DNA of 39,404 nt from the IMG/VR virus record IMGVR_UViG_3300044844_000375, positions 1-39,404 of that record; one strand, 5' to 3'. This DNA comes from a virus. Position 1 is the stretch's first letter. Each line of letters begins with the position of its first letter. Below are positions 32,809 through 35,330 of this stretch, one piece after another. Below the pieces are notes generated by a model. It worked only from the letters and a program-made list of their open reading frames with translations, did not search any database and was not told where the DNA came from. The translations under genes were made by a program, and so were the position numbers.

Positions 32809-32816
32809 TATATTTG
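32809..32816 (+). promoter_or_regulatory. Promoter box TATATTTG for RNA unit 1
   Basis: Perfect TAnnTTTG; bases 32787-32789 are TTT where TTG would be expected 19 bases upstream. No gene starts nearby; the next structure is a terminator ending about 93 bases downstream. Confidence 0.6.
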
Positions 32817-32820
32817 TGGC

Positions 32821-32918
32821 AACAGTACCCGAACGCTTACCATTCAGAACAGCGTACCAGTTAGGGTCTTTTACTTAGCCCGTCAAGGTTTGTGGTTATC
32901 CTTGACGGGTTTCTTTTT
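32821..32918 (+). ncRNA. Putative small RNA 1 (about 95 nt)
   Basis: Bounded by the TATATTTG box and a terminator. Near its 5' end ACGCT and AGCGT can pair. Then come GGGTCTTTT, an AGCC-led stem and the loop GGTTTGTGGTTATCC, all found again in unit 2. No convincing frame: a stop-free stretch covers it but has no start context or family. Exact ends are estimates. Confidence 0.6.
32879..32918 (+). terminator. Terminator of RNA unit 1
   Basis: Perfect 10-bp stem CCCGTCAAGG/CCTTGACGGG (32879-32888, 32900-32909), 11-base loop TTTGTGGTTAT, then TTTCTTTTT. Confidence 0.92.
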
Positions 32919-32925
32919 ATCTTTG
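32918..32925 (+). promoter_or_regulatory. Promoter box TATCTTTG for RNA unit 2
   Basis: Perfect TAnnTTTG overlapping the T run of the first terminator, so unit 2 restarts immediately after unit 1 stops. No clear TTG at the right spacing. Confidence 0.55.
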
Positions 32926-32929
32926 TAAT

Positions 32930-33025
32930 AATCAAACTTGACACGCCTCTGATTCAAGCGCACTTTGTCGGGTCTTTTCAGCCAGTCGTGAGGTTTGTGG
33001 TAATCCTTGCGACTGGTTTATTTTT
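32930..33025 (+). ncRNA. Putative small RNA 2 (about 95 nt), related to RNA 1
   Basis: Shares ATTCA, AGCG, GGGTCTTTT, AGCC and the loop GGTTTGTGGT-ATCCTTG with unit 1 in the same order, with small gaps. The box-to-hairpin-end distance is 91 bases (93 in unit 1). It ends at a second terminator. Noncoding by absence of a plausible start and frame. Ends are estimates. Confidence 0.6.
32982..33025 (+). terminator. Terminator of RNA unit 2
   Basis: A 12-pair stem (CCAGTCG with CGACTGG, continued by TGAGG with CCTTG using two G-T pairs), loop TTTGTGGTAAT, then TTTATTTTT. The loop differs from terminator 1 by one base. Confidence 0.9.
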
Positions 33026-33026
33026 A

Positions 33027-33084
33027 TTTATTTTCACTTTTGTAAGTTTTATGCTATTTAGATAGAAAACGCTTTGTACTTTTG
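33027..33084 (+). promoter_or_regulatory. Upstream regulatory block B with TACTTTTG box
   Basis: The second copy of the block at 416-474 (22 of 24 identical in the core). It ends in a perfect TAnnTTTG box at 33077-33084, with a 22-base leader to the ATG at 33107. It probably drives the early genes from 33107 to 34882. Confidence 0.65.
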
Positions 33085-33106
33085 TCCTATCAAACAAACA
33101 GAAACC

Positions 33107-33301
33107 ATGAACGAAGTAACTACACTAATCAGAAAAGCATTTGACAATGACGGTTTTTTGGTAAATCCAAAAAGCAGAAAAAATCAACAAGCGGCAAAGG
33201 CAGCGTTAGAAAGCGGTGTTAATTACGCTAATCAAACACTTGACGGCTACAATGTTCACGTTTCTTTGTTAATCATTGCTTACCCTAATCAATCAATATA
33301 A
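33107..33301 (+). CDS. Small hypothetical protein, first early gene (64 aa)
   Basis: 64 residues from the ATG at 33107 (an in-frame start at 33074 would lie upstream of the transcription start implied by the TACTTTTG box). Soluble, N-rich; no family recognised. It leads the early operon. Confidence 0.65.
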   Translation: MNEVTTLIRKAFDNDGFLVNPKSRKNQQAAKAALESGVNYANQTLDGYNVHVSLLIIAYPNQSI

Positions 33302-33365
33302 ACCTAACCAGCATCCGAACGGGGGCGAGCAATCAAACCCGAACGGAGGCACAAAAAAAACCACG

Positions 33366-33602
33366 ATGAAAACAATACACGAATTAGTCAAGTATTACGA
33401 AACAGGCAAGAGAGAATACCTTGCAAAAGGAAGTCTACAACATTGCATGAACGAACTTAACATTTGGAAATTTCTTGCAAGAAAAAATGGAGCTGATATT
33501 TCAAGCGAAGATGACTTTCACATGAATTGCATTGATTATTCTGGAAACGGTATAGATGTACTGTTTCAGATTTATGACACTCAAGAAGAATTGTTTGATT
33601 AA
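33366..33602 (+). CDS. Hypothetical protein (78 aa)
   Basis: 78 residues from the ATG at 33366, preferred over an in-frame start at 33276 because the intervening residues are low-complexity (NGGEQSNPNGG) and cover a purine-rich leader. Helical N terminus, acidic end (DVLFQIYDTQEELFD). Function unknown. Confidence 0.65.
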   Translation: MKTIHELVKYYETGKREYLAKGSLQHCMNELNIWKFLARKNGADISSEDDFHMNCIDYSGNGIDVLFQIYDTQEELFD

Positions 33603-33626
33603 CCAACCACTAAAAACCACAACACA

Positions 33627-33809
33627 ATGGAAACCAAAATGAAGCCTTGCCCTGACTGCGAAGAAGGGCAAAAATACGAGGACACAAGCCGACAATGCAC
33701 AAAGTGGCGTAACGAATGCTGCGGTGGATGCGGACACTATTATGACTGTGAAACTTGCAACGGAACAGGCGAAGTAGAAGATGAGGACGAAACCGAAGAA
33801 AACAAATAA
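33627..33809 (+). CDS. DnaJ-type zinc-finger small protein
   Basis: 60 residues with CPDCEEG, CCGGCG and CETCNGTGE, the CxxCxGxG pattern of the DnaJ central zinc domain, and an acidic tail (EDEDETEENK). No J domain. Small proteins of this kind are common in phage early regions; a chaperone-like or DNA-related role is unproven. Confidence 0.75.
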   Translation: METKMKPCPDCEEGQKYEDTSRQCTKWRNECCGGCGHYYDCETCNGTGEVEDEDETEENK

Positions 33810-33811
33810 CC

Positions 33812-34075
33812 ATGATCACACTAACACAACTTGAATCTGCGCTAAAAGACACGCCAAATCTAAGCGCATTGGCATACCTCAAAGGAGCGATTGCGGCTAC
33901 TCGGTTAAACTCCGACACCTCCGCACACATCGAATGCGACAAGGTAACTCTGGGCGAACTTGCTCGCGCTTTGCAAGTGGAAAGCCATTGGAACGGGCGA
34001 ACGTACAGCCTAACGATTGAAAACGGGGCGCACTTTGTAATTCTTCAAACGCCTGTAATTGTAAGCGCAAAATGA
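33812..34075 (+). CDS. Hypothetical protein (87 aa)
   Basis: 87 residues. Predicted helix-rich first half (LTQLESALKDTPNLSALAYLKGAIAAT) and a small beta region at the end. It overlaps the DnaA-like gene by 4 bases. No family recognised. Confidence 0.65.
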   Translation: MITLTQLESALKDTPNLSALAYLKGAIAATRLNSDTSAHIECDKVTLGELARALQVESHWNGRTYSLTIENGAHFVILQTPVIVSAK

Positions 34076-34443
34076 AGATGACAGCAGAACAACTGGCCGC
34101 CATTAAACAACGGCTATCCGAGCGTAAATTCCTACCCAATGTAAGTGTTGAGGGGCTATGTATTGCAGCAATGGAAGTGCATCAAATCGAATGGTCGGAA
34201 ATAGTTAGGAAGTCCAACCTTCCCCACGTTGTAAAATGTCGTGAGCAAATAGCCTACGTTATCTATACTTACATAAACCAATCTACTTACTTAGACATGG
34301 GTAAGTTGCTGAACAGAAATCACAGCACGGTTATCCACAACGTACGACAAGCAAGGGCATACATATCAATCGAGCCCAAATACAAAGAGCAAATTGAAAC
34401 AATCTTAGAGATGGCGAAGCAATGGGAACAAGAGCAGAAATAA
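34072..34443 (+). CDS. DnaA domain IV-like replication initiator protein
   Basis: 123 residues. KCREQIAYVIYTYINQSTYLDMGKLLNRNHSTVIHNVRQA (about residues 55-94) closely follows the DnaA domain IV signature, with RNHSTVIHN (82-90) in the DnaA-box recognition helix (typically RDHSTV). The AAA+ ATPase domain is absent. Stand-alone domain IV proteins could bind origin DNA or interfere with host DnaA. It lies about 480 bases from a cluster of repeated boxes. Confidence 0.85.
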   Translation: MKMTAEQLAAIKQRLSERKFLPNVSVEGLCIAAMEVHQIEWSEIVRKSNLPHVVKCREQIAYVIYTYINQSTYLDMGKLLNRNHSTVIHNVRQARAYISIEPKYKEQIETILEMAKQWEQEQK

Positions 34444-34610
34444 TATGCGCACTACTCATGCAAGGCAGCTACTCCGTTGTCGATTTACAAGCCCACGTTA
34501 GCAGAATCCAAAAGCGAAAGAAGTGGAGTGATAGCGTTATCGAAAACGAGTTGAAGAGGTTACCAGTTACTAAGGATGGAAACCTTTACACGATTGAGCC
34601 ATGCCAGTAA
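34422..34610 (+). CDS. Small winged-helix-like protein (62 aa)
   Basis: 62 residues: IICALLMQGSYSVVDLQAHV and SDSVIENELKRLPVTKDGNLYTI suggest a winged-helix fold (helices, then a beta wing). It overlaps the genes on each side by 22 and 10 bases. The DNA-binding role is inferred. Confidence 0.6.
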   Translation: MGTRAEIICALLMQGSYSVVDLQAHVSRIQKRKKWSDSVIENELKRLPVTKDGNLYTIEPCQ

Positions 34611-34882
34611 ACAAGTCCGCTTTCAAACGCTATCTTGTAATCATTCGCGAGCTGCGTGCTGCAAGTTATGACCATCCACTCACTCGGTTTGCATTGGCCG
34701 ATAAGGTTAATTCGTTCCTGGGAAATGATACCAGCGCGGCAACCATTGAAAAGGACATACAAACATTAAGGCATGATAGCGACCTTGCCTTTTTCGTTCC
34801 AATCCGAGCGCGTAAATTAGGCTATTGGATTGAGGACGACTACCTACTATCTGACCACATCGCCAAAACGTGGCGCATCTAA
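34601..34882 (+). CDS. Winged-helix DNA-binding protein (WYL-regulator-like N-terminal domain)
   Basis: 93 residues. RYLVIIRELRAASYDHPLTRFALADKVNSFLGNDTSAATIEKDIQTLRHD is the pattern of the HTH_11-type winged helix of WYL regulators, with GYWIEDDYLL as the wing. No WYL domain is present. As the last gene before a terminator and the box cluster at 34921-35181, it is a candidate ligand for those boxes. Confidence 0.75.
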   Translation: MPVNKSAFKRYLVIIRELRAASYDHPLTRFALADKVNSFLGNDTSAATIEKDIQTLRHDSDLAFFVPIRARKLGYWIEDDYLLSDHIAKTWRI

Positions 34883-34891
34883 ACACTAAAG

Positions 34892-34914
34892 AGCCTCCGG
34901 ATGGGGGCTTTTTT
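34892..34914 (+). terminator. Rho-independent terminator after the early genes
   Basis: AGCCTCC pairs with GGGGGCT (one T-G pair) around GGAT, then T6. It ends the early operon. Confidence 0.88.
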
Positions 34915-34920
34915 GTTTTT

Positions 34921-35181
34921 GGACGTATCGCAATTCTCAGCATGGACGTATTTATGCCCGTTTTATTTTATTGTGCATTAGTAAACCCCCGTGTTTATTG
35001 ATTGGACGCATTGGACGTTTCCCTATACCCTTATCTATTGATTTTTGAGAATTATCGTTTTATACATATTATTTCAAAATTGAGTTTTAATTCGTCCATA
35101 CGTCCAAAGTCAATAGCAGTAAAGGTTTGATAAAGTCCGAATCTGTATTTCAATTAATCCAAATGTCCTTTTGATACGTCC
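34921..35181. repeat. Cluster of GGACGTAT-type boxes; candidate origin or operator array
   Basis: GGACGTAT occurs at 34921-34928 and 34944-34951, and its complement ATACGTCC at 35098-35105 and 35174-35181. Variants are TTGGACGCA (about 35002-35010), TTGGACGTT (about 35011-35019) and TTCGTCC (35091-35097). The boxes span 260 bases of AT-rich noncoding DNA between an early terminator and a promoter. The setting, next to DnaA-like and winged-helix genes and upstream of the primase-helicase, suggests an origin or operator. Confidence 0.7.
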
Positions 35182-35204
35182 TAAAATAAATTTTAACCTA
35201 TGGA

Positions 35205-35234
35205 TTGTATATTTAAAATAGTTGTGTATATTTG
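35205..35234 (+). promoter_or_regulatory. Consensus Bacteroidota promoter (TTG-N19-TATATTTG)
   Basis: TTG at 35205-35207, exactly 19 bases, then TATATTTG at 35227-35234. This is the only promoter in the window with both elements at consensus spacing. Start of transcription is expected near 35239-35242. Confidence 0.85.
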
Positions 35235-35238
35235 CAGC

Positions 35239-35330
35239 GTTACAGTTGGCTCAGAACTGAAAACACATAAAAGACATTTTGAAAGCCTGTTAGGGGATGC
35301 ACTGAGCCTGCTGAACCTAACAGGTTTTCT
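35239..35330 (+). ncRNA. Putative small RNA 3 / leader RNA (about 90 nt)
   Basis: It runs from the consensus promoter to a terminator hairpin. A CAGTT/AACTG hairpin near the 5' end echoes units 1 and 2 in layout, and the terminator also opens with AGCC and closes with GG-TTT, but the primary sequence differs. It may be a separate RNA or an attenuator leader for the primase-helicase operon, whose first ATG is 18-20 bases on. Confidence 0.55.
35286..35328 (+). terminator. Terminator or attenuator of RNA unit 3
   Basis: Perfect 9-bp stem CCTGTTAGG/CCTAACAGG (35286-35294, 35316-35324) with a 21-base loop and TTTTCTTA. Weaker T run than units 1 and 2, so partial read-through to 35348 is likely. 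Confidence 0.75.

What the first reader, a model, noticed from the sequence alone, without database searches (positions are those of the whole stretch)
32809..35330. A three-member family of about 90-nt promoter-to-terminator RNAs in the noncoding regions
Three places (32809-32918, 32918-33025, 35205-35330) have the same design: a TAnnTTTG box, 90-93 bases, and a terminator hairpin led by AGCC and closed by GG-TTT. Units 1 and 2 are clear relatives (shared ATTCA, AGCG, GGGTCTTTT, near-identical loop TTTGTGGTTAT/TTTGTGGTAAT) with diverged stems that keep pairing (10-bp perfect; 12 bp with two G-T). Covariation of the stem with a conserved loop implies selection on RNA structure. Unit 2's promoter sits in unit 1's T run, so they are independent tandem units. 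I know of no described phage RNA family of this form.
Basis: partly seen in the sequence, partly recalled or inferred. Interest (0 to 1): 0.8.

Follow-up and report, generated by a model that had tools for sequence, protein, structure and literature searches.

The report
Phage RNAs mimicking host suicide-toxin antitoxins
This phage, which probably infects Bacteroidota bacteria, carries two tandem small RNAs that are copies of two kinds of the RNA 'antitoxin' bacteria use to restrain the AbiF suicide toxin, without the toxin gene, so they probably disarm the host's altruistic-suicide defence during infection.

Summary
Units 1 and 2 are real, recurrent RNA genes. About 20 related phage contigs carry the same locus. 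A covariance model built only from RNAs upstream of chromosomal AbiF toxin genes (Abi_2, PF07751), found by protein search, picks exactly these two places in the 39.4-kb window: unit 2 at 41.6 bits (E 4e-10), unit 1 at 33.7 bits (E 1e-7), next best 12.6 bits (E 0.23). Chromosomal unit-2-like RNAs lie directly upstream of Abi_2 genes, often with the same TAnnTTTG box at the same spacing. One differs from a phage copy only by two compensated base pairs and one base in the U-run. Unit-1-like RNAs lie upstream of a separate, supported AbiF clade. No Abi_2 gene occurs on any of 23 phage records. Most likely the phage makes two AbiF antitoxin mimics that inhibit host AbiF RNases, as pseudo-ToxI does for ToxN. 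Homology is shown; expression and inhibition are inferred. Unit 3 is not a member. Orphan abiF RNAs are known as annotations and occur in many other phages, including lytic isolates. The paired two-subtype array, and the unit-1 subtype that Rfam misses, appear new.

The parts
32809..32816 (+). Promoter box TATATTTG of unit 1 (Bacteroidota -7 type)
   Evidence: Sequence. Box kept at fixed spacing before the RNA domain in all related phages listed; 16 of 34 chromosomal AbiF RNAs have TAnnTTTG, nearly all ending 3 nt before the model start, against 0.85% of random 26-mers. No clear -33 TTG at the usual distance.
32820..32874 (+). Unit 1, AbiF-antitoxin-like 5' domain (subtype with ACGCT...AGCGTACCAG...GTCTTTT)
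   Evidence: Host-only covariance model R1: 33.7 bits, E 9.9e-8 in the whole window. Chromosomal counterparts upstream of Abi_2: L051, L061-L064, L068, L082.
32877..32919 (+). Terminator hairpin of unit 1, loop TTTGTGGTTAT, T run
   Evidence: Fold -20.1 kcal/mol, z -5.35. Chromosomal unit-1-like RNAs also have a terminator hairpin after the domain.
32918..32925 (+). Promoter box TATCTTTG of unit 2, inside the T run of unit 1
   Evidence: Sequence; same spacing as in chromosomal AbiF RNAs.
32929..32980 (+). Unit 2, abiF RNA 5' domain (core GCCTCTGANNNAAGCGCA; outer stem 32936-32942/32967-32973, inner stem 32944-32946/32958-32960)
   Evidence: R1: 41.6 bits, E 4.1e-10. RF03085 37 of 37 positions, 23.8 bits. 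Chromosomal counterparts directly upstream of Abi_2.
32980..33026 (+). Terminator hairpin of unit 2, loop TTTGTGGTAAT, T run
   Evidence: Fold -21.8 kcal/mol, z -6.74.
33077..33084 (+). Promoter-like box TACTTTTG of the next early gene (ATG at 33107); not part of the RNAs
   Evidence: Sequence and scan.

Best explanation
Units 1 and 2 are phage-encoded orphan AbiF antitoxin RNAs of two different subtypes. Each is probably transcribed from its own TAnnTTTG promoter and stopped at its own terminator, giving a short RNA whose 5' hairpin is homologous to the RNA that binds and inhibits the HEPN ribonuclease toxin AbiF (Abi_2, ancestor of Cas13). The phage has the antitoxin but no toxin. During infection the RNAs would bind host AbiF in trans and keep it inactive, so abortive infection fails. 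Two subtypes would cover two AbiF clades. Shown here: homology in sequence and structure, genomic link of the chromosomal relatives to Abi_2, no Abi_2 on the phage records, conservation of promoter box, hairpin and terminator. Inferred: expression, binding, inhibition, benefit to the phage.
For: Model R1, built only from RNAs upstream of Abi_2 genes found by protein, gives units 2 and 1 as the only significant hits in the window and finds both in the related phages. R1's own seed covaries: 6 of 10 pairs with changes on both sides, 100% of cells paired. Genome scan with the unit-2 core: 18 loci, nearly all Bacteroidota, 9 of 9 tested downstream ORFs are Abi_2, 158-199 bits. Phage L006 and chromosomal L029 differ by two compensated pairs and one U-run base in 49 positions. 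RNA subtypes track different toxin clades. 0 of 23 phage records carry Abi_2. Published: RCd22 neutralises AbiF in trans through direct binding (PMC12373285); phage pseudo-ToxI RNA defeats ToxN (PMC3475682).
Against: No expression or binding data. Unit 1's outer stem is weakened: three non-standard pairs against the model. The phage's host is unknown, so a cognate AbiF is not shown. Several records are fragments, so absence of Abi_2 is not proof. The conserved terminator loop of the phage RNAs is not explained by AbiF binding.
Confidence: 0.75

Rival explanations
1. Cis-acting attenuators or insulators: the hairpins and terminators stop or tune transcription into the downstream early genes, re-using the attenuator role that the RNA also has upstream of chromosomal abiF; no AbiF binding in trans.
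For: The units lie upstream of early genes and end in strong terminators. RCd22 also acts in cis by premature termination (PMC12373285).
Against: The downstream gene has its own promoter box (33077) and differs between related phages. An attenuator would not need the AbiF-type loop and linker letters, which are the most conserved positions. Two different AbiF subtypes in tandem are not expected for this role.
Confidence: 0.12
2. Trans-acting riboregulator: the conserved terminator loop pairs with leaders of phage early mRNAs, and the abiF-like domain is a structural scaffold.
For: The 11-nt loop TTTGTGGTTAT is perfectly complementary to ATAACCACAAA in an early-gene leader of about half of the related phages, twice in L002.
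Against: Absent from the window itself and from about half of the relatives; loop complements are not generally enriched before gene starts; some phages use other terminator loops.
Confidence: 0.07
3. Passive remnants of a captured abiF locus that lost its toxin gene, with no present function.
For: Unit 1's outer stem has mismatches; no toxin gene is left.
Against: Promoter box, hairpin and terminator are kept in about 20 phages, with compensatory changes, while no trace of the toxin remains.
Confidence: 0.05

Closest known systems
abiF RNA (Rfam RF03085), RNA antitoxin of AbiF/Abi_2 (RCd22 of C. difficile; AbiFr of PbAbiF)
   Same: Outer stem, three-pair inner stem, loop starting CUCU (unit 2), single-stranded 3' linker, all 37 positions aligned for unit 2; same promoter-RNA-terminator layout as the chromosomal copies
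   Different: No toxin gene; two subtypes in tandem, each with its own promoter; below Rfam's cut-off; unit 1 belongs to a subtype that Rfam does not report
Pseudo-ToxI of Pectobacterium phage PhiTE (PMC3475682)
   Same: Phage RNA that mimics a host RNA antitoxin, without the toxin; expected to stop abortive infection
   Different: Different toxin family (ToxN, not HEPN AbiF); PhiTE uses tandem repeats of one antitoxin, here two separate RNAs of two subtypes; PhiTE is proven, this is not
abiF RNA of cyanophage S-CREM1 (PMC9964418)
   Same: abiF RNA on a phage genome
   Different: One canonical copy above the cut-off; its role was left open and no antitoxin-mimic function was assigned
AbiF system of C. 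difficile prophage phi027 (PMC12373285)
   Same: AbiF antitoxin RNA on a (pro)phage, active in trans
   Different: There the toxin gene is present next to the RNA

Membership tests
abiF RNA (RF03085) | Match to the Rfam model at or above the curated cut-off of 37 bits | tested here: not met
   Unit 2 23.8 bits, unit 1 no match; best related phage 32.7. Chromosomal RNA L029, directly upstream of Abi_2, is also below it (28.1), so the cut-off misses true relatives.
AbiF antitoxin RNA in the wider sense | Match to a model of RNAs found upstream of Abi_2 genes | tested here: met
   R1: 41.6 and 33.7 bits, E 4.1e-10 and 9.9e-8
AbiF antitoxin RNA in the wider sense | Double hairpin: outer stem, inner stem, loop, unpaired 3' linker, with covariation | tested here: met
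   Unit 2: 96% of cells paired across 10 phage copies, changes on both sides in 3 pairs. Unit 1: inner stem varies ACGCT/AGCGT to ACGCA/TGCGT, outer stem imperfect.
AbiF toxin-antitoxin system | Abi_2 toxin gene next to the RNA | tested here: not met
   No PF07751 on 23 phage records including the window. The locus is therefore not filed as an AbiF system.
AbiF antitoxin RNA in the wider sense | Binds AbiF and neutralises it | not testable with these tools
   Needs toxicity rescue and binding assays
Phage RNA antitoxin mimic (pseudo-ToxI type) | Homology to a host RNA antitoxin, toxin absent | tested here: met
Phage RNA antitoxin mimic (pseudo-ToxI type) | Expressed in infection and lifts abortive infection | not testable with these tools
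   Needs infection experiments

The most novel reading that the evidence does not exclude
The locus is an exchangeable cassette of RNA decoys: related phages mix two AbiF-antitoxin subtypes with further hairpin modules that may mimic antitoxin or guide RNAs of other RNA-controlled defences, giving a multivalent, protein-free anti-defence array.
Probability: 0.3. Interest if true: 0.92.

Novelty: new variant of a known kind. Interest (0 to 1): 0.77.

Why it matters
AbiF is the toxin from which Cas13 is thought to have arisen, and its RNA antitoxin is described, but how phages answer AbiF is largely open, and orphan abiF RNAs on phage genomes have been listed without a function. Here phages carry two divergent AbiF antitoxin RNAs in tandem, with no toxin, next to early genes. 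If they work in trans, this is a second, independent case of RNA antitoxin mimicry by phages, and widespread: 79 of 80 IMG/VR records with a canonical abiF core lack Abi_2, and the isolates Acj61, CRP-143 and vB_AhaP_PT2 carry an orphan copy. It is directly testable. It also adds an AbiF RNA subtype that Rfam misses.

Tried and rejected
Rfam at gathering cut-off: nothing in the window. Nearby named phages by DNA: none. Unit 3 as a member: rejected. The ctRNA_pT181 and STnc240 matches are chance. The RF03085 search of whole genomes rang nowhere, even in genomes with known copies, so it is uninformative. Phage sk1, said in a reference title (seen) to hold a region protecting against AbiF: no abiF-like RNA by R1 or Rfam. 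General enrichment of the loop complement before gene starts: not found. BLASTN of a unit-1-like chromosomal RNA against named phages: only chance matches.

Full report
What was checked. The window is a 39.4-kb virus record with terminase, portal, tape-measure, exonuclease, primase-like and helicase genes. Units 1 and 2 lie in a non-coding stretch between the exonuclease region (ORF ending 32451) and an early gene whose ATG is at 33107.

The family is real. An 18-base loop-and-stem pattern, the unit-1 core and the unit-2 core each hit IMG/VR contigs, and the true hits are the same locus in about 20 related phages. Unit 1 is nearly always present; unit 2 is missing in some, such as L003, L009, L014, L020, L021 and L022. 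Terminators and extra hairpin modules are swapped between phages, so the defining part is the 5' domain.

What the 5' domain is. Rfam's abiF RNA aligns over all 37 positions with unit 2, weakly in the window (23.8 bits) and better in related phages (32.7). A genome scan with the unit-2 core gave 18 loci, nearly all Bacteroidota. In most of them the RNA is followed within about 60 nt by an ORF, and many have a TAnnTTTG box just before it; nine of nine ORFs tested are Abi_2. The closest chromosomal RNA examined, L029, differs from phage L006 by two compensated pairs and one U-run base in 49 positions.

Independent test. To avoid circularity I collected Abi_2 genes by protein profile, read their upstream RNAs, and built a covariance model from 12 of them. 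Searched without filters over the whole window, it returned unit 2 (41.6 bits, E 4.1e-10) and unit 1 (33.7 bits, E 9.9e-8), then nothing above 12.6 bits. The same model finds the units in the related phages and the other chromosomal RNAs; phage sk1, as a negative control, reaches only 13.3 bits. Unit 1 belongs to a subtype (CACGCTTCCC...AGCGTACCAG...GTCTTTTGC plus terminator) that Rfam does not report in the chromosomes tested (L049, L051, L057, L061, L062). In a tree of 36 Abi_2 proteins, those with unit-1-like RNAs (L051, L061-L064, L068, L082, L088) form a 100/98 group, and those with unit-2-like RNAs (L029 to L045) a different group (81/75, core 100/99).

Orphan state. There is no Abi_2 on 23 phage records including the window. 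A scan for a canonical abiF core hit 87 IMG/VR stretches; of the 80 records available, one carries Abi_2. By a simple rule 35 of the 80 have an outer stem of at least 5 pairs; many others seem to pair only with a longer linker, and some may be chance matches. Named isolates with an intergenic abiF RNA above Rfam's cut-off and no Abi_2: Acinetobacter phage Acj61 (58.0 bits), Roseobacter phage CRP-143 (50.8), Aeromonas phage vB_AhaP_PT2 (44.4).

Mechanism. Published work shows that the AbiF RNA RCd22 acts in trans by binding the toxin and that its stem is needed (PMC12373285). A review states that nucleotides in a single-stranded bulge of the AbiF RNA inhibit the toxin (PMC12737573). In the phage RNAs the loop and linker letters are the most conserved, and the outer stem covaries. 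With promoter box and terminator kept and the toxin absent, the simplest reading is antitoxin mimicry, as shown for pseudo-ToxI (PMC3475682). Expression, binding and inhibition are inferred, not shown.

Novelty. abiF RNA on a phage has been reported as an annotation (cyanophage S-CREM1 and three phage genomes in Rfam; PMC9964418), without this function. I found no held paper that proposes phage abiF RNAs as AbiF antagonists (most subscription papers are not searched). I therefore call it a new variant of a known kind: an RNA antitoxin mimic, for a toxin family not known to be answered in this way, as a tandem of two subtypes.

Limits. Model E-values are rough (short calibration). Several records are fragments. 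The genomes are unnamed. The host of the phage is unknown; Bacteroidota is inferred from the promoter box and the chromosomal relatives.

Noticed in passing
32889-32899 (loop of terminator 1); L002 6438 and 12730, L003, L007, L009, L014, L016, L020, L022, L023: The 11-nt terminator loop TTTGTGGTTAT is perfectly complementary to ATAACCACAAA in an early-gene leader about 20 nt before the ATG in about half of the related phages. The window's own leader lacks it, and there is no general enrichment.
   Followed up: partly
L006, L009, L010 (CCGTTGCATTGGACTGGGG...); L002, L018, L026 (CAGCTAACGGATAG...); L022 (CCCGTAGGCTAAAAAGCACACTATCGGG); L002, L008, L016 (CCCGTTGCTTTAGG... terminators): Related phages insert or swap further hairpin modules at the same locus; one terminator type has a 7-bp inner stem that covaries. 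They do not match the AbiF model and have no known relatives; they may be other decoys.
   Followed up: no
35205-35330: Unit 3: TATATTTG box and strong hairpin; GGCTCAG in the 5' part could pair with CTGAGCC in the hairpin loop. No relatives found.
   Followed up: partly
L049, L051, L057, L061, L062 upstream of Abi_2: A subtype of AbiF antitoxin RNA (loop TCCC instead of CTCT) that Rfam RF03085 does not report.
   Followed up: partly
L036, L038, L042, L043, L046: Chromosomal abiF-like RNAs without an Abi_2 gene right after them; L038 lies near a phage portal gene and L046 near a phage-type transposase, so these may be prophage copies.
   Followed up: partly
L047 (75-kb contig) and L048 (53-kb contig): Unrelated phage contigs with the unit-2 core and an outer stem, no Abi_2.
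   Followed up: partly
34072-34443: Small ORF with a DnaA C-terminal helix-turn-helix match just under Pfam's cut-off (31.2 of 31.5 bits).
   Followed up: no
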